Positions 55,877 to 61,197 of a stretch of 64,000 nt of DNA are shown here, one piece after another (the stretch's first letter is position 1; each line of letters begins with the position of its first letter). The DNA is from Sapientia aquatica. GTDB lineage: Bacteria > Pseudomonadota > Gammaproteobacteria > Burkholderiales > Burkholderiaceae_D. The stretch spans positions 248,001 to 312,000 of the forward strand of contig NZ_SMYL01000005.1 in NCBI RefSeq assembly GCF_004358105.1, in the 5' to 3' direction. Both the position numbers and the translations under genes were made by a program. Below the pieces are notes generated by a model that saw only the letters and a list, made by a program, of their open reading frames with translations, searched no databases and was not told the DNA's origin.

Positions 55877-55906
55877 AAAAGGGCTGCAATAAATTGCAGC
55901 CCTTTT
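55877..55906 (-). terminator. Terminator at left end of tRNA-Asn island (original tRNA terminator)
   Basis: Arms 55877-55890 and 55893-55906 form a perfect 14-bp stem with a two-base spacer, then T-runs on both sides. On the minus strand it follows the displaced tRNA-Asn 3' end (55915-55960). Its GGGCTGCA/TGCAGCCC core is nearly repeated at 61086-61113. Confidence 0.85.
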
Positions 55907-55914
55907 GAATTTTT

Positions 55915-55960
55915 TGGCTCCCCGACCTGGACTCGAACCAGGGACCTGCGGATTAACAGT
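55915..55960 (-). repeat. attL: 46-bp copy of tRNA-Asn 3' part
   Basis: Identical over 46 bases to 61122-61167, which is nucleotides 31-76 of the intact tRNA-Asn (anticodon loop to CCA end). Identity stops at both sides. It is a displaced tRNA 3' end left by integration. Confidence 0.92.
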
Positions 55961-56163
55961 TTTATATCATTAACTTCTGTATAGATAAATGGCTCGCCCT
56001 CACTCGCTAAATAACGCCAGATATCGCCGAAATTGTCACGTTCATCAAAATGGCTGTTTTTGTAATTTGACCGGATTGTGCCCTAAACGGTCTCTCATAC
56101 TTTTGCAAAGCGGACGTTAATATTGATTAGAATTTCATCGAAACGGGCTGCTCTAGGGTAAGG

Positions 56164-56658
56164 CTAATTATTAGTTGATGGATACAACTGTATATTTTTA
56201 AATCCACGGAACATGTGCGCTCCAATTTTATTATTACTATCTTCCTCGTAGATATAGACCAAATAAACACTGAGTTGAGATCCCTTAACTAAAAAATAGA
56301 TATCTGTACCTGCTAAGTCGTAAGGTAAACTCCACCTCAAATCAACGGTGTCTTGATAAATTGCTCCAGTTAATTCGTCTTGCCACTTTACGTACAAAGA
56401 AGTTGGCCTGTCGTACTGAAAGCCCAGCCCACCAGCATAGGATTTTTCTAGATTCGCGACAGATTTTCTAGATGGAGCATCAATTTGCGCATTCCATCCA
56501 TCTAAGCGATAGTCAAGAATAGCTGCGTGCTGATCGTCATCATTCATATCAAAATGAAACCCACATGACCGCGTCTTCATGTGCACGAGTTCATAGGCAG
56601 CAAACAAAATCAACCCAACGATAAAGAGAATATTAAAAAATATTTTTGATTTTTTCAT
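56164..56658 (-). CDS. Exported/membrane-anchored protein, paralogue of 56806-57315
   Basis: A 164-residue protein with an N-terminal hydrophobic helix ('FFNILFIVGLILFAAYEL') and no lipobox cysteine. The body has 'SCGFHFDMNDDDQHAAILDY', 'GLGFQYDRPTSLYVKWQDEL', 'TVDLRWSLP' and 'QLYPS', shared in order with the neighbouring gene. The layout recalls DUF2931-type small lipoproteins, a tentative resemblance. Cargo of the integrated element. Shine-Dalgarno is weak. Function unknown; a protective or immunity role is possible but unproven. Confidence 0.65.
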   Translation of the reverse strand: MKKSKIFFNILFIVGLILFAAYELVHMKTRSCGFHFDMNDDDQHAAILDYRLDGWNAQIDAPSRKSVANLEKSYAGGLGFQYDRPTSLYVKWQDELTGAIYQDTVDLRWSLPYDLAGTDIYFLVKGSQLSVYLVYIYEEDSNNKIGAHMFRGFKNIQLYPSTNN

Positions 56659-56805
56659 TTAGAATTTTTAGCCACTGAATCGAACATTTGGTAATCAATC
56701 TCGATGTTTATTTTTACCACTTGCCAATTTAGCTCGGCTTACTTTTGACTGCTCTGTGCCGATCTGGGCAATTAGCATTTCTATTACGCTACTACCGATA
56801 ATCGT

Positions 56806-57315
56806 TCACTTACGGCTATCTGAATTTGGATAAAGCTGAAGATTTTCATATCCCTCATAAATTGAAGAACCAATTATTGGTTTATCTTTTGCACGGGATT
56901 TATTTAACTTTAAATAAACAAAAATTTCAGATCCATGAACAATGAAATACAAATCCGTCGCCTCTAAATTTCGAGGAATCACCGGACGTAAGTCAACAGT
57001 CTTCTCATAAATTGAACCAGAAACATCATCCTGCCATTTCACATATAAAGAAGTTGGCCTGTCATATTGAAAGCCTAACCCCTCAAAATACCATTTATGA
57101 CCTTTTTCAACGTAAGCAGTTTGAGTCTCGGCTATTTTTGCGTTTTCGCCCATCAATAGAAAATCAAGAACTGCTGCGTGTTGATCATCGTACCCCATAT
57201 CAAATCCAAATCCGCAGGACGGTTTCTGAACGAAATAATTATCACACGCCGTCAATGCGAACAGAGTCAGCCCTGCGAGAAATGTTACACGCGAAAATGT
57301 TCGATAAAATTTCAT
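56806..57315 (-). CDS. Small lipoprotein, paralogue of 56164-56658
   Basis: A 169-residue lipoprotein: signal peptide with the lipobox 'LTAC' near residue 24. It shares 'SCGFGFDMGYDDQHAAVLDF', 'GLGFQYDRPTSLYVKWQDDV', 'TVDLRPVIP' and 'LQLYPN' with the downstream gene, so the pair arose by duplication (one lipidated, one with a plain helix). Both are transcribed leftward, away from the rest of the element. Family tentative (DUF2931-like). Function unknown. Confidence 0.68.
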   Translation of the reverse strand: MKFYRTFSRVTFLAGLTLFALTACDNYFVQKPSCGFGFDMGYDDQHAAVLDFLLMGENAKIAETQTAYVEKGHKWYFEGLGFQYDRPTSLYVKWQDDVSGSIYEKTVDLRPVIPRNLEATDLYFIVHGSEIFVYLKLNKSRAKDKPIIGSSIYEGYENLQLYPNSDSRK

Positions 57316-57518
57316 CTGAAATACATTTCTGGTATCTATTCGGGTTTATGTGGTCTGCTCTGGTTTTACCCATCAAGGGAGTACCTCATAAGGCCGCTTC
57401 GTGCCGTTTTGCGTCGTTGACCGCTTTGCTTGAGTATTGCTTTAAGGTATTATTTTGTCAGTTCAACACATAATAACTGAAAATTAATACATAAATAAAA
57501 AAATCAACTTCGACAGGC

Positions 57519-58388
57519 ATGCATACAAATCTAGTGGATAAACAGAAAGCGATTGATGACGCAATTTTAATCACGCCTCAATTTTTAGAGAAATTTAAGG
57601 ACTTGAAAGATAAAGGTGGTCGTATTAGCTCTTCGTCGGACTTTTCCGCGAAACAACGTGAGTTAGCTCCATCTTACGTTTACTTATACGAGTCTAAAGC
57701 AAAATTACAACTCGCTTATTTATTGTATTTGTATGGCGAGGAAAAACTAATTTTGATGTCGCCCGATGAACGCGATGCTCTTATTAACGAAATAAACTTA
57801 TCTCCCGATGATTGTGAAAACAGTTTGCACGTTGATTTTAAAGTTCCCGACAATTTTGCAGATCAGAAATTGGCTATAACTAAGCTTGAAAGTTTGCCTG
57901 AAGCTCGAAGGAAGGAGGCGAAAAATAGGCATGCTTTTTATGGATGCTTTGCGTTAGCCACATTTTTCAATAATTCCGCTTTGATGGCTCATGGCGCTGA
58001 AATGACAACGCTGGTTCCTTTAGCTATTGCTGGAGATGACGATGCTTTTCTTAAGGCGATACAGATTGATTCAATGTTACTTGTTCATCATAAATATTTC
58101 CAAAATCGTAAATTAGAAGCGCAAAGTGGTCAGCAGCCCGAGTTTCTAAGAAAACTTTTGTATCGAGAATCAAATCCTGTTTTGAAGGGGAGAATAGAGT
58201 ATCCGGGGTTGTATATGCTTTTTGGTGTTCTAGATTCCTATAAATGCTTAGATCTCTTTAACCATGACGAAATATTGAATATTGCCGATGCGGCTGGCTT
58301 AGACCGCTTTCAAAATAAGATTGATGATGTCAATTATTTGACTAAGCGTTTAAGTGATTATCGGAAATGGCAGAAAACGTTGCAATAG
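57519..58388 (+). CDS. Unknown helical protein, mobile element cargo
   Basis: A 289-residue protein that I cannot assign. It is predicted mostly alpha-helical, soluble, with no signal peptide or catalytic motif; seen are 'YVYLYESKAKLQLAYLLYLY' and 'LVHHKYFQNRKLEAQ'. Its DNA is A+T-richer than the flanking chromosome. No strong Shine-Dalgarno precedes ATG 57519, so translation may start elsewhere. It lies between the divergent lipoprotein gene and rep. Anti-phage, addiction or element-control roles are all open. Confidence 0.55.
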   Translation: MHTNLVDKQKAIDDAILITPQFLEKFKDLKDKGGRISSSSDFSAKQRELAPSYVYLYESKAKLQLAYLLYLYGEEKLILMSPDERDALINEINLSPDDCENSLHVDFKVPDNFADQKLAITKLESLPEARRKEAKNRHAFYGCFALATFFNNSALMAHGAEMTTLVPLAIAGDDDAFLKAIQIDSMLLVHHKYFQNRKLEAQSGQQPEFLRKLLYRESNPVLKGRIEYPGLYMLFGVLDSYKCLDLFNHDEILNIADAAGLDRFQNKIDDVNYLTKRLSDYRKWQKTLQ

Positions 58389-58498
58389 TCAATGCTGTGA
58401 AATTTAATTTGAGTGCATTCAGTTAAGTTTGCTTGATCCATAAAGTTCGTATCCGTTGCAGGAAACATGTGTATGCCTGCCGAAACGGAGCAACTACG

Positions 58499-59824
58499 AT
58501 GGATGAATTAAGCCGTAATGATCAAACGACGAATAGAGTTAAAGGGGTTTTAGAGGCCGTTGAGATTGTCCTCTTGTCCGGCTTGACCGGACAAGAGGAC
58601 AATCTCGACGGAACAAAGGGTACGCCACCTAGTAACACAGTACCTAATAACTGCAATAGTGACTACTTTAAGCCTCTTCGGTGGGGGGTTGATAGTCTGT
58701 ATTTATCTTATCCCGGTCAATTATCCGAAGTGGTGGACAAAGAGCTGCGGTCATTAAAAACCTTGGCCCAAGAACGCAAAGACCTTGCTGCGAAAGCTCA
58801 ATATTCTTTGGATGGTCATATCTTTGAGGTGAAAGATAAAAGCTCTGGTCTGTTTCCCTTTACGATTGAAGATAATTCGTTTCAGATTCGATTATCCGCC
58901 AGTCACGCAAAAGCATTGCCGATGGCCTACGTTAAAGTTTCGAGCCACTATCTAGCCTATAAAACTCCTCCAGATGCCGAAAGTCATTTGCGCAGCCTTC
59001 TCTATCCTCTCGGCGAAATAAGTCCTCCGAACGTCTCTAGAATTGATTTGTTCGTTGATTTTGCATCGAATGAGGATATGGAGAGTTGGACGCGGTCTGC
59101 TTGGGTGACTAAAGCCAGTGGATTGAGTCAGTTCGTTGAACACCAAACATTTACTGGATGGTCTATCGGGGCTGGCGGTGTGGTGATGGCGCGGCTCTAT
59201 AACAAGCGAATTGAAATTCAAAAGAGTAATAAACTCTATTTGGAACCACTTTGGCGGGAGGCCGGTTGGGATGGCGAATCTAATGTGTGGCGGCTTGAAT
59301 TTCAATTAAAAAGTGAACTACTAAAGCAACTTGGCTTTACCAGTTTGCCCGGTATTGAGGGCAATCTCAATGGCATATGGCGTTACTTAATGACTGATTG
59401 GCTTAAGCTGACTATTCCGAGCCAGACCGATAAAACGCGAAGCAGATGGCCTGTTCATCCGCTCTGGAACCTGTTAGCCGCCACTGATTGGAAAACGCAG
59501 GGCGGACCATTATTGCGGACCTATTCACCGTCTCGCGTTCCTAGTGAAGAGTCTGTCGCACGACGTGCATTAACGTCGCTAGCATCCATTGGTGCTCTGC
59601 GTGGCTTGTCGAACTTTGATGATGCCGTCGATGCGTTAGAAGATGCAATGTACAAATGCCTTGATGGTCAGGCTTTTGACCTAGGCATCACGCATAACGC
59701 GTTATTTCAAGAAAAAGTCGAGATCCTTCAGCGCAAATATAACACTCGTCTCAATCCACCGTTGCCAGAGGTTGAAGACAAGACGTTTGCCAAAGAATAT
59801 CGCCGTCAAACACAAGGCTACTAA
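58499..59824 (+). CDS. Rep_trans-like replication initiation/mobilisation protein
   Basis: A 441-residue protein from ATG 58499 (GGAG 8 bases upstream). Seen: 'RWGVDSLYLSYPG', 'NVSRIDLFVDFASNEDM', 'GWSIGAGGVVMARLYNKRIE' and 'NVWRLEFQLKSELLKQLG'. This pattern, an acidic 'RIDLFVDF' strand followed by 'RLYNKxxE', recalls the Rep_trans family (PF02486) of rolling-circle initiators such as pT181 RepC, phage RstA and Tn916 MobT-type relaxases. A perfect 20-bp inverted repeat lies in its 5' coding part (58562-58606), outside the conserved domain. It ends 2 bases before the excisionase start. The nickase tyrosine is not assigned. Confidence 0.7.
   Translation: MDELSRNDQTTNRVKGVLEAVEIVLLSGLTGQEDNLDGTKGTPPSNTVPNNCNSDYFKPLRWGVDSLYLSYPGQLSEVVDKELRSLKTLAQERKDLAAKAQYSLDGHIFEVKDKSSGLFPFTIEDNSFQIRLSASHAKALPMAYVKVSSHYLAYKTPPDAESHLRSLLYPLGEISPPNVSRIDLFVDFASNEDMESWTRSAWVTKASGLSQFVEHQTFTGWSIGAGGVVMARLYNKRIEIQKSNKLYLEPLWREAGWDGESNVWRLEFQLKSELLKQLGFTSLPGIEGNLNGIWRYLMTDWLKLTIPSQTDKTRSRWPVHPLWNLLAATDWKTQGGPLLRTYSPSRVPSEESVARRALTSLASIGALRGLSNFDDAVDALEDAMYKCLDGQAFDLGITHNALFQEKVEILQRKYNTRLNPPLPEVEDKTFAKEYRRQTQGY
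58562..58606. repeat. Perfect 20-bp inverted repeat inside rep gene
   Basis: Arms 58562-58581 and 58587-58606 are exact complements with a five-base loop CTTGA. It falls within codons ~22-36 of the rep gene in a non-conserved stretch. A stem this long and exact in coding sequence is unlikely by chance. Candidate double-strand origin or oriT; pT181-type plasmids carry their origin inside rep. Confidence 0.8.
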
Positions 59825-59826
59825 CC

Positions 59827-60210
59827 ATGCATGACGATGGCTTGCCATTGCCTGCTATTCGTTGTTTGACGCGAGAACAAGCGGCGCATTATCTGGGGAT
59901 CGGTGCAACTTTATTTAGTGAGTTGGATGTGCCTTGCATCAAATTCGGTCGCCGAACGGTCTACGATAAGGTTGACTTGGATGCGTGGTTAGATGATTAT
60001 AAGCAGCGAGGGCGAGCCGGAAAGGAAACTTTATGGCTCAAGAAATTGGAGTGTTCAAACGACCGGACTCCCGGTTCTATTGGATCAATACTACCCTCCC
60101 GAACGGTCAACGTTTACGCCAAAGCACTGGGACTGAAAGCCGAAAGGAAGCCGAAGCGTACCTCGCCAAGGTCAACCTCGACGCTTACCGTCAAGCCCAT
60201 TTCGGCGTGA
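59827..60210 (+). CDS. AlpA/MerR-like excisionase
   Basis: A short DNA-binding protein. The first ~68 residues contain 'LTREQAAHYLGIGATLF', 'CIKFGRRTVYDKVDLDAWLDDY', a winged helix typical of excisionase (HTH_17/AlpA-like). The rest of the 127-residue frame overlaps the integrase start by 178 bases in another frame and looks like shadow. It starts 2 bases after the rep stop. The true end may be functional or just a late stop. Confidence 0.7.
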   Translation: MHDDGLPLPAIRCLTREQAAHYLGIGATLFSELDVPCIKFGRRTVYDKVDLDAWLDDYKQRGRAGKETLWLKKLECSNDRTPGSIGSILPSRTVNVYAKALGLKAERKPKRTSPRSTSTLTVKPISA

Positions 60211-61043
60211 AATCGGAACGTTCTTGGGAAGAAGCCGTTGTTCGGTATCTCGAACTTAAAGCAAGTTTGCGGAGCTTTAGAGATGTGCAGCGCATTTGTC
60301 GCGGTCTTCATCCTTATTTAGCTGGTTTGAATTTGAACCAGATTACCGGGGATGAAATTTGGCGTATTGCACAAGGTGAATTGAAGCGGGGGAATAAACC
60401 TGCGACGGTGAACCGTTATTTAGCGTTAGTGCGTAATTTGTTGCATATGGCACGCGATGAATGGCAATGGGTTGATACCATCCCTAAAATCCGCATGTTG
60501 TCGGGCGAAGTAGAGCGTGATCGATGGTTGACGAAAGAGGAGGCCGTGCGGTTGATTGCAGCGTGTCCTTCTCACTTGGCTGCCTTAGTCCGTTTTGCGT
60601 TGGCGACTGGTTTGCGTGCTAGCGAGATTACCGGCTTGGAATGGGGTAGGGTAGATTTAGCGCGGCATACCGCATGGTTGAACCAAACCAAAAATGGGAC
60701 CTCGCGAGGGGTTCCTTTAAATGTTGATGCGGTGGCGGTTTTAGTGGAGCAGGTTGGAAAGCATCCTCAATTTTGTTTTACATACAACGGTAAGCCTATC
60801 GGTTGGGATGTCACGAATACCGCTTGGCATAACGCATTACGTAAGGCAGGAATAGAAGATTTTAGGTTTCATGATCTCCGGCACACATGGGCGTCATGGC
60901 ATCGTCAGGCGGGAACGTCGTGCGATGAACTGAAAGATTTAGGAGGATGGAAGTCGCGGGTGATGGTGGATCGTTATGCCAAGTTCGCGACTGAGCATTT
61001 GCAAGTGGCGGCGTCTCGGATTGAATCGATGTTTGGGAAGTAA
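60033..61043 (+). CDS. int: Tyrosine integrase
   Basis: A 336-residue phage-type integrase. N-terminal arm-binding domain 'GVFKRPDSRFYWINTTLPNG' and SAM-like core-binding domain; catalytic domain with 'ATGLRASEITGLEWGRVDL' (Arg), 'KNGTSRGVPLN' (Lys), 'FHDLRHTWASWHRQAG' (His-x2-Arg), and the tyrosine in 'MVDRYAKF'. AAGGA lies about 6 bases before ATG 60033. It lies 78 bases from the intact tRNA-Asn, its likely attachment site. Confidence 0.95.
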   Translation: MAQEIGVFKRPDSRFYWINTTLPNGQRLRQSTGTESRKEAEAYLAKVNLDAYRQAHFGVKSERSWEEAVVRYLELKASLRSFRDVQRICRGLHPYLAGLNLNQITGDEIWRIAQGELKRGNKPATVNRYLALVRNLLHMARDEWQWVDTIPKIRMLSGEVERDRWLTKEEAVRLIAACPSHLAALVRFALATGLRASEITGLEWGRVDLARHTAWLNQTKNGTSRGVPLNVDAVAVLVEQVGKHPQFCFTYNGKPIGWDVTNTAWHNALRKAGIEDFRFHDLRHTWASWHRQAGTSCDELKDLGGWKSRVMVDRYAKFATEHLQVAASRIESMFGK

Positions 61044-61085
61044 CGTGCAAAGGTTGTCACGTTTTTGTCACGGTCTGAAATAGAA

Positions 61086-61113
61086 AAAGGGCTGCATTTG
61101 CATGCAACCCTTT
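61086..61113. terminator. Terminator between integrase and tRNA-Asn
   Basis: AAAGGGcTGCA/TGCAaCCCTTT with one mismatch and a six-base loop. It serves the integrase and, on the minus strand with T-run, the tRNA. It is similar in sequence to the left-end terminator 55877-55906, so the element seems to replace the tRNA terminator it displaced. Confidence 0.75.
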
Positions 61114-61121
61114 GTATTTTG

Positions 61122-61167
61122 TGGCTCCCCGACCTGGACTCGAACCAGGGACCTGCGGATTAACAGT
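61122..61167 (-). repeat. attR: 46-bp repeat in intact tRNA-Asn
   Basis: Identical to 55915-55960; covers tRNA nucleotides 31-76, so the crossover region includes the anticodon loop, a common target of tyrosine integrases. Confidence 0.92.
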
Positions 61168-61197
61168 CCGTCGCTCTACCGACTGAGCTATCAGGGA
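61122..61197 (-). tRNA. tRNA-Asn (GUU)
   Basis: A 76-nt cloverleaf on the minus strand with anticodon GTT at nucleotides 34-36, TTCGAGTCC T-arm, CCA encoded. The acceptor stem pairs TCCCTGA with TCGGGGA (one T-G wobble). It is the integration target of the 5.2-kb element, which restored its 3' end. Confidence 0.97.

What the first reader, a model, noticed from the sequence alone, without database searches (positions are those of the whole stretch)
55915..61167. A minimal 5.2-kb integrative element in tRNA-Asn
Seen: exact 46-bp repeats, an intact tRNA at one end, integrase, excisionase, a Rep_trans-like protein and three cargo genes. There are no structural or conjugation genes. Known: tRNA-targeted tyrosine integrases and Rep_trans proteins occur in mobilisable elements and phage satellites. 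Inference: this is a self-replicating integrative element or satellite that depends on a helper. The set of genes is unusually small and the cargo is unfamiliar.
Basis: partly seen in the sequence, partly recalled or inferred. Interest (0 to 1): 0.75.

Follow-up and report, generated by a model that had tools for sequence, protein, structure and literature searches.

The report
Tiny self-copying tRNA-inserting mobile element
A 5.2-kb stretch of DNA inserted in a bacterial tRNA gene belongs to a widespread, apparently undescribed family of very small mobile elements that seem to copy themselves as circles, hide their copying start site inside their own copying gene, and carry ever-changing cargo, often anti-virus defence genes.

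Summary
In detail: exact 46-bp repeats of the tRNA-Asn 3' end, 5,207 bp apart, one in an intact tRNA, enclose an integrase, an HTH excisionase and a replication initiator. One correction: only the two lipoprotein-like genes are cargo; orf289 belongs to a core family.

I compared 94 loci from beta- and gammaproteobacteria; int follows rep in 85. In 40, window included, both ends were found: 4.5-10.3 kb, eight kinds of tRNA gene, 32-59-bp repeats. Cargo differs almost completely; 14 of 27 elements tested carry a PADLOC-like defence gene.

Main new result: rep contains, inside its coding sequence, a fixed-spacing hairpin (window 58618-58645) around [G/C]TAACA[C/G], found in 90 of 94 loci. Its stem covaries and its codons are frozen. 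The predicted Rep fold matches Rep_trans rolling-circle initiators, whose known nick site is CT'AA in a hairpin loop. I read it as a replication or transfer origin embedded in rep.

Best reading: an integrative element that excises, replicates by rolling circle and depends on something else to move between cells. Excision, nicking and transfer were not shown. No VirB4 or Zot match was found in the host genome. My capped paper searches found no description of this family.

The parts
55877..55906 (.). terminator-like hairpin beside the distal repeat; probably the tRNA's original terminator, displaced by the insertion
   Evidence: perfect 14-bp inverted repeat; similar hairpins lie beside tRNA-Asn in congeners L164-L166
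55915..55960 (-). distal attachment repeat: displaced 46-nt 3' end of tRNA-Asn
   Evidence: exact copy of 61122-61167
56164..56658 (-). cargo gene lip1, 164 aa, N-terminal hydrophobic stretch
   Evidence: no Pfam, PHROG, NCBIfam or PADLOC match; relatives in 8 of 245 genomes of the family, own genome included with 4 copies
56806..57315 (-). cargo gene lip2, 169 aa, lipobox-like LTAC (read by eye); paralogue of lip1
   Evidence: 48% identical to lip1; no family match
57519..58388 (+). core gene orfA (orf289), 289 aa, function unknown
   Evidence: profile relatives within 2.5 kb upstream of rep in 70 of 94 loci; no Pfam or PDB sequence match
58389..58421 (+). IR2: imperfect palindrome between orfA and rep, candidate operator or accessory site
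   Evidence: pattern in 42 of 69 loci with orfA and 1 of 18 without (87 of 94 loci examined); threshold set after looking
58499..59824 (+). rep: Rep_trans-like rolling-circle initiator, about 441 aa (ATG 58499 read by eye; residue numbers in the text count from codon 58502)
   Evidence: catalytic motifs conserved in 78 aligned Reps; AlphaFold2 pLDDT 87, best PDB matches 4CIJ, 4CWE, 4CWC
58557..58611 (+). long hairpin, arms 25 nt with one mismatch, just upstream of the nick-site hairpin inside rep; candidate Rep binding site
   Evidence: as single-stranded DNA z -9.8 against 200 shuffles
58618..58645 (+). nick-site-like hairpin inside rep: GGGTAC-N8-G-TAACA-C-A-GTACCT; predicted nick between 58633 and 58634
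   Evidence: at fixed spacing in 90 of 94 loci; covariation; found again without a DNA pattern in 78 of 78 aligned Reps, with frozen codons; only site of its core pattern in the window
59827..60210 (+). xis: HTH_17 excisionase-like protein, overlaps the start of int
   Evidence: Pfam HTH_17 E 2.5e-4, under the cut-off; PHROG 7338 (unknown function) E 4e-8
60033..61043 (+). int: tyrosine integrase, 336 aa, ends beside the tRNA
   Evidence: Phage_integrase E 1.9e-33, PHROG integrase E 6e-63
61085..61115 (.). terminator-like hairpin between int and the tRNA, probably carried by the element next to its attachment site
   Evidence: same position in congeners and in several relatives
61122..61197 (-). 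intact tRNA-Asn(gtt); 61122-61167 is the proximal attachment repeat
   Evidence: ARAGORN, Rfam

Best explanation
A minimal integrative element of an apparently undescribed family. Int, helped by Xis, recombines a 46-bp attachment site that copies the 3' end of tRNA-Asn, so insertion leaves the tRNA gene whole and gives it the element's own terminator. The excised circle is replicated by rolling circle: Rep, a Rep_trans-like tyrosine transesterase, nicks the loop of a hairpin that lies inside its own gene (58618-58645, predicted nick T58633/A58634). The same cut could serve as a transfer origin if a helper supplies the pore or coat. OrfA is a core accessory or regulator, probably acting at the palindrome before rep. 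Cargo between the distal repeat and orfA is replaced freely and is often anti-phage defence. Shown by sequence: ends, gene order, family, hairpin constraint, cargo turnover. Inferred: excision, nicking, replication, OrfA role, cell-to-cell transfer.
For: Ends and tRNA. Int follows rep in 85 of 94 loci and a tRNA on the opposite strand lies within 3 kb in 62; 40 delimited elements counting the window, at eight kinds of tRNA, and 11 more by repeats near int. Several copies per genome: three loci in one MAG (L064, L070, L098), three near-full rep matches plus a partial one in G817. Rep motifs D64, R180, Y233, K235, E266 invariant and D182, E238, R264 at least 90% in 78 Reps, fitting the published Rep_trans motifs RxD, YxKxxE, (W/L)xRxE (PMC5714925, passages). 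Fold matches 4CIJ E 6e-10, 4CWE and 4CWC and an Inoviridae Rep E 3.5e-13. Hairpin in 90 of 94 loci; on 87 distinct rows 98.9% of cells paired against 83.3% in shuffles, 6 of 7 pairs with two-sided changes, covariation 0.467 against 0.153. Located by protein alignment alone, 78 of 78 rows pair at six or seven of seven positions (542 of 546 cells), with Ser AGT 66 of 67, Asn AAC 77 of 77, Thr46 ACA 66 of 66, Arg AGA 12 of 12, against 13%, 45%, 19% and 7.5% in the rest of rep. Known MOBT and Rep_trans nick site is CT'AA in a hairpin loop (PMC9371924, passages). Congeners lack the element.
Against: No excised circle or attP junction was seen: none of 20 loci that span whole contigs had matching ends. 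No empty site joining both window flanks was found; in two congeners the left-flank genes lie on another contig than the tRNA. Pfam Rep_trans score is 12.5 bits against a cut-off of 29.6, and a profile of 78 Reps found no Rep among PDB sequences. 77 of 90 hairpins read GTAA, not the published CTAA. The window's own 5-bp stem folds no better than shuffles by energy. The TAACA core was part of my search pattern; one aligned Rep reads TATCA. Four loci with enough sequence show no similar Int after rep (L073, L101, L122, L137).
Confidence: 0.8

Rival explanations
1. Integrative and mobilizable element: Rep is chiefly a MOBT-like relaxase and the hairpin an oriT; the circle moves through the conjugation pore of a resident or incoming helper.
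For: Rep_trans-type relaxases do both jobs in Tn916 and ICEBs1 (PMC5704250, passages). MOBT oriT is a GC-rich hairpin with CT'AA in the loop (PMC9371924, passages). VirB4 in 5 of 12 Rep-positive genomes of the order sample against 56 of 288 others, Fisher p 0.07.
Against: No coupling protein or conjugation gene among the element's proteins; no VirB4 match in the host genome; co-occurrence not significant.
Confidence: 0.35
2. Satellite of filamentous phages: the rolling-circle single strand is packaged in the coat of a helper inovirus.
For: Best viral fold match is an Inoviridae Rep. Some inoviruses integrate in tRNA genes with their own integrase and HTH_17 excisionase (PMC7549136, passages), and one Cupriavidus filamentous prophage has a Rep_trans initiator (PMC10011098, passages). 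That 4.5-10.3 kb would suit a filamentous particle is recalled knowledge.
Against: Zot in 0 of 12 Rep-positive genomes (16 of 369 in all), and none in the host genome; no packaging signal looked for.
Confidence: 0.15
3. A decayed remnant, no longer mobile, kept for its cargo.
For: No excision evidence; no empty site matched to both flanks.
Against: rep, xis, int and orfA are open, Rep's catalytic residues conserved, repeats exact, hairpin intact but for one end pair, relatives in several copies per genome.
Confidence: 0.15
4. The hairpin in rep is an RNA control element (translation or attenuation) and not a DNA origin.
For: Covariation alone cannot tell RNA from DNA.
Against: It lies inside the coding sequence, after the start codon; its loop resembles the nick site of the kind of enzyme it encodes; no Rfam match overlaps it at E 0.1.
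Confidence: 0.1

Closest known systems
Streptococcal IMEs and ICEs with Rep_trans/MOBT proteins (IME_Sag2603_tRNAlys, ICESt3, Tn916, ICEBs1)
   Same: integration module with a Rep_trans-type initiator; nick hairpin with TAA in the loop; some IMEs at tRNA genes (PMC5704250, passages)
   Different: proteobacterial hosts; hairpin inside the initiator gene, while ICESt3 oriT lies between genes (PMC6499999 section 7); no coupling protein seen; rep-xis-int beside the tRNA; defence-like cargo
pT181-family rolling-circle plasmids
   Same: Rep_trans fold and motifs; hairpin nick site with a neighbouring inverted repeat as candidate binding site; origin inside the rep gene is recalled for pT181, not looked up
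   Different: chromosomally integrated with its own integrase; candidate bind repeat upstream, not downstream as described for Rep_trans (PMC9371924, passages); sequence too distant for Pfam's cut-off
Actinomycete AICEs such as pSAM2 (recalled)
   Same: rep-xis-int block beside a tRNA attachment site, rolling-circle replication
   Different: no FtsK-like transfer gene matched here; a different Rep family, as recalled
Filamentous prophages (Pf phages; Cupriavidus STM 6018 prophage with a Rep_trans initiator)
   Same: rolling-circle genomes; in Pf, tRNA target, integrase and HTH_17 excisionase (PMC7549136, passages)
   Different: no coat, Zot or assembly gene matched in the element
Defence-carrying tRNA or tmRNA islands lacking transfer genes (Pseudomonas I23/I44/I55, Vibrio phage defense elements)
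   Same: tyrosine integrase, direct repeats, defence cargo, no autonomous transfer (PMC12595487, passages)
   Different: in the passages seen, I23/I44/I55 are described with integrase and AlpA, not with a Rep_trans initiator or nick hairpin, and sit at tmRNA

Membership tests
Rep_trans endonucleases (PF02486) | motifs D, RxD, YxKxxE, (W/L)xRxE | tested here: met
   D64, R180-D182, Y233-K235-E238, R264-E266 invariant or at least 90% in 78 sequences; V in place of W/L in motif IV; motif II not matched clearly; motifs as listed in PMC5714925 (passages)
Rep_trans endonucleases (PF02486) | fold of solved Rep_trans initiators | tested here: met
   Foldseek 4CIJ E 6.4e-10, 4CWE 2.2e-7, 4CWC 2.7e-7, probability 1.00, TM about 0.5 by target and 0.33-0.34 by query
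Rep_trans endonucleases (PF02486) | Pfam gathering score | tested here: not met
   12.5 bits against 29.6; so called Rep_trans-like, not a PF02486 member by Pfam's rule
Rep_trans endonucleases (PF02486) | CT'AA nick site in a hairpin loop | tested here: inconclusive
   hairpin in 90 of 94 loci; loop reads CTAA in 13 and GTAA in 77; cleavage not tested
Integrative and mobilizable element (IME) | own integration and excision module | tested here: met
   int, xis-like gene and att repeats; activity not tested
Integrative and mobilizable element (IME) | relaxase and/or oriT used by a helper's conjugation pore | tested here: inconclusive
   Rep and hairpin could serve; no helper shown
Phage satellite | depends on a helper phage for packaging | not testable with these tools
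   none of the six proteins matched a packaging family; Zot co-occurrence 0 of 12
Inovirus prophage | coat and Zot/assembly genes | tested here: not met
   none among the element's six proteins; no Zot match in the host genome
AICE | FtsK-like DNA translocase for double-strand transfer (recalled) | tested here: not met
   no such gene among the six proteins

The most novel reading that the evidence does not exclude
A new class of satellite: rolling-circle integrative elements that make single-stranded circles from an origin embedded in rep and are packaged by filamentous helper phages, spreading anti-phage defence genes that act against other phages.
Probability: 0.13. Interest if true: 0.85.

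Novelty: new variant of a known kind. Interest (0 to 1): 0.64.

Why it matters
It gives a recognisable signature (rep with embedded nick hairpin, then xis, int, then the tRNA) for a family of very small mobile elements in beta- and gammaproteobacteria, many with defence-like cargo; the window's element shows no transfer gene. How such elements move is an open question. The hairpin makes a precise prediction: one enzyme, one 28-nt DNA, one cut. It is also a clear case of protein sequence dictated by a DNA signal: the peptide changes in concert with the stem (GT..VP, GA..AP, DA..AS, VA..AT, GS..EP).

Tried and rejected
tRNA duplication as the source of the repeat: rejected, since relatives with other cargo show the same repeat type at other tRNA genes.

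Orf289 as cargo: rejected.

Direct sequence links of Rep: tblastn found nothing in phages and four tiny Synechococcus plasmids at 23-29% identity; the PDB profile search found nothing relevant.

AlphaFold2 on Rep alone gave a useless model (pLDDT 35); repeated with the 78-row alignment (pLDDT 87).

Lip1 likeness to L073:8035-8451 in the cargo alignment was an artefact.

Circular contigs: no end overlap in 20 loci that span whole contigs.

Zot as helper mark: no co-occurrence.

Codon counts were partly fixed by the DNA pattern used to place the motif; I recounted from the protein alignment without that pattern and use those numbers.

Defence enrichment: the PADLOC tally of 86 cargo proteins gave 392 families at E 1e-5, and 86 length-matched flank proteins from the same loci 38 families. 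These are family counts, inflated by methyltransferases and AAA proteins, not counts of proteins; flanks also held defence genes.

Literature: six searches by idea and two by PF02486 or NicK showed no title or abstract start describing this family. Several lists were cut (20 of 21, 20 of 113, 20 of 60, 15 of 30 and 12 of 133 shown), and the library is open-access only.
Full report
Observation. The window holds a 5,207-bp unit bounded by exact 46-bp repeats, 55915-55960 and 61122-61167. The second is the 3' part of the only tRNA gene that ARAGORN found in the window, tRNA-Asn(gtt) 61122-61197 minus. Each copy is next to a terminator-like hairpin. Genes: lip1 and lip2 (minus), orf289, rep, xis and int (plus). 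Int is clear (Phage_integrase E 1.9e-33), Xis fair (HTH_17 E 2.5e-4, below Pfam's cut-off), Rep weak by profile (Rep_trans E 0.11; PHROG replication initiation protein E 5e-4); orf289 and the two lip proteins match nothing convincing. GC is 43.2% for the element and 38.6% for its cargo part, against 50.2% in the 10 kb to its left.

Relatives. Rep matches occur in 12 of 369 genomes drawn from the class and, with a profile, in 12 of 300 from the order, own genome included in both; two of the latter, G323 and G723, are partial and weak. A pattern scan of 84,980 species genomes confirmed 181 relatives, of which 80 were returned: Nitrosomonas, Thiobacillus, Methylotenera, Herbaspirillum, Polaromonas, Glaciimonas and others. 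IMG/VR gave three, of which I used two. I studied 94 loci: 80, 2, 11 of the 13 non-window matches (G323 and one of three G332 matches left out), and the window. No two share an identical 400-bp piece of rep.

Architecture. An Int relative follows rep in 85 of 94 loci; of the nine others, five are cut within 500 bases after rep and four (L073, L101, L122, L137) show no similar Int. An Xis relative is seen at tblastn level in 56. A tRNA gene lies within 3 kb downstream in 62, on the opposite strand in each. In 40 loci, window included, a 32-59-bp copy of the tRNA's 3' end lies upstream of rep, giving elements of 4,474 to 10,257 bp, median 6,392, at Asn 13, Lys 9, Phe 6, Met 4, Arg 4, Thr 2, Leu 1, Pro 1 (shorter repeats, as in L075 and L105, were not counted). 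Of 22 loci without a complete tRNA found after int that I searched for a repeat near the int end, 11 showed one of 26-87 bp and 11 did not. Several of these int ends abut a tRNA 3' fragment that is not completed, as in tandem arrays. The integrase falls into a near group (about 67-82% identical to the window's) and a far group (about 32-49%) that do not strictly follow Rep identity, so modules seem to be exchanged. A 65%-identical integrase with an xis also sits at tRNA-Lys in G407, which had no Rep match.

Core and cargo. A profile of orf289 finds a relative within 2.5 kb upstream of rep in 70 of 94 loci. Of the 24 others, 10 are cut within 500 bases of rep by a contig end, and of the remaining 14 nine have a protein of one of two other kinds there. 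Cargo lies between the distal repeat and orfA: 105 open frames of at least 80 aa in the 40 elements (this count includes five genes of those other kinds). Apart from these five, only three pairs of cargo genes in different elements were alike at E 1e-5. I tested 30 of the larger cargo genes from 27 of the 40 elements against PADLOC at E 1e-8: 15 genes in 14 elements matched, among them AbiL (L039), type II, IIG and III restriction or methylation (L041, L100, L132), a SIR2/ThsA-like protein (L136), NsnA (L120), PDC-S20 (L125), HerA (L090) and OLD-like (L128). The other 13 elements were not tested gene by gene there; the window's two cargo genes matched nothing. Pfam on ten cargo proteins also showed unrelated functions, such as a P-type ATPase (L111), ankyrin repeats (L069) and TPR repeats (L066), and nothing for three. 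As a rough control, 86 cargo proteins matched 392 PADLOC families and 86 length-matched flank proteins 38; these are family counts, not protein counts. The window's lip genes belong to a family with four copies in the host genome and relatives in 7 further genomes of 245 searched; in one of them a lip gene precedes a protein with a Tle1-like match just over the cut-off, E 3.4e-6. An immunity-like or envelope role is only a guess.

Rep. In 78 aligned Reps D64, R180, Y233, K235 and E266 are invariant and D182, E238 and R264 at least 90% (numbering from codon 58502). These fit Rep_trans motifs listed in PMC5714925 (passages); Y188 of RepD and Y252 of RelSt3 are the catalytic tyrosines in motif III (PMC6499999, passages). 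AlphaFold2 with the alignment gave pLDDT 87, with residues 1-41 and 47-51 under 50. Foldseek's six best PDB matches are Rep_trans initiators (4CIJ chains E 6.4e-10 to 1.6e-9; 4CWE 2.2e-7; 4CWC 2.7e-7), followed by TATA-binding proteins at E 2e-3 and worse. The best viral match is an Inoviridae Rep.

Embedded hairpin. The poorly ordered N-terminal part contains the conserved peptide GTPPSNTVP. Its DNA shows why: GGGTAC-N8-[G/C]TAACA[C/G]-A-GTACCC, with the same spacing in 90 of 94 loci. Three of the four misses (L043, L044, L046) are cut by contig ends; the fourth is L110. On 87 distinct rows of these 90, 98.9% of cells pair against 83.3% in shuffles, six of seven pairs change on both sides (97 cells against 21.9), covariation is 0.467 against 0.153, and sliding the partners by 1-3 columns destroys it. 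The search pattern fixed the TAACA core and G or C on either side of it, so I repeated the test without any DNA pattern: placed by protein alignment alone, 78 of 78 Reps show the hairpin with at least six of seven pairs (542 of 546 cells), TAACA in 77 and TATCA in one (by elimination L110), inner pair G-C in 66 and C-G in 12. Codons there are frozen: Ser AGT 66 of 67, Asn AAC 77 of 77, Thr46 ACA 66 of 66, Arg AGA 12 of 12, against 13%, 45%, 19% and 7.5% in the rest of rep. The peptide pattern used for fetching favoured GTPPSNT, but loci reading DA..AS, VA..AT or GS..EP do not fit it and presumably came through the second pattern. So the DNA, not the peptide, appears to be under selection. In the ICESt3/Tn916/ICEBs1 group and Rep_trans plasmids the nick is CT'AA in the loop of a hairpin; ICESt3 has a 7-bp GC-rich stem with 12 nt between (PMC9371924, passages). 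Here 13 of 90 loci read CTAA and 77 GTAA. I therefore predict a nick at T58633/A58634. In the window a second, very strong hairpin (58557-58611, z -9.8) lies just upstream, where some relatives have other inverted repeats; it may be the binding site. The window's nick hairpin itself folds no better than shuffles by energy (z -0.23). A palindrome before rep (58389-58421) follows the presence of orfA: 42 of 69 loci with orfA against 1 of 18 without, with 12 of 435 shuffles reaching the same score; the threshold was chosen after looking.

Mobility and helpers. Three of four congeners show tRNA-Asn beside the same aminotransferase but not this element; two have another integrase, or part of one, there. 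None of the four has a Rep match. No empty site with both window flanks was found; the ABC transporter and ExeA-like neighbours lie on other contigs in two congeners. In the order sample VirB4 is in 5 of 12 Rep-positive and 56 of 288 Rep-negative genomes (p 0.07); in the class sample Zot is in 16 of 369 and in none of 12 Rep-positive. The host genome matched neither. Transfer is therefore open.

Novelty. IMEs with Rep_trans or MOBT proteins are described in streptococci, and the 2017 review passage says the exhaustive searches for IMEs had been made only in Firmicutes (PMC5704250, passages). Defence-carrying islands at tmRNA without transfer genes are known (PMC12595487, passages). I found no description of this family in the listings. 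I class it as a new variant of a known kind: a rolling-circle integrative element with an origin inside rep.

Noticed in passing
L065:3492-4247, L066:8912-9652, L069:8914-9651, L080:8947-9684, L085:5038-5766; L070:8882-9721, L086:7894-8703, L101:6285-7136, L109:8904-9668: Some elements carry another protein (SLWEIAHYW-like or ELSVWDI-like N terminus) at the orfA position; L080, L085, L069 and, less well, L065 have a different palindrome before rep (TGYAGACGTATTTACGTYTGCA-like; L066 does not), as if each upstream protein had its own site.
   Followed up: partly
G000:C58:39143-39616 (L167) and G000:C22:749604-750092 (L168): Two more copies of the lip cargo family in the host genome outside the element.
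   Followed up: partly
L171:5922-9296: A lip relative directly upstream of a 905-aa protein with a T6SS Tle1-like match just over Pfam's cut-off; hints at an immunity role.
   Followed up: no
L165:9385-9693 and L166:856-1855: In two congeners other tyrosine integrases, one a fragment, sit at the same tRNA-Asn next to the same aminotransferase; the site looks like an insertion hotspot.
   Followed up: partly
L048:9183-10618: Closest integrase seen without Rep (65% identical) with an xis at tRNA-Lys in G407, which had no Rep match; the int module is shared with other islands.
   Followed up: no
L036:2171-2418: A fragment of a second integrase just before the distal repeat of an element at tRNA-Arg, a sign of tandem insertion.
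   Followed up: no
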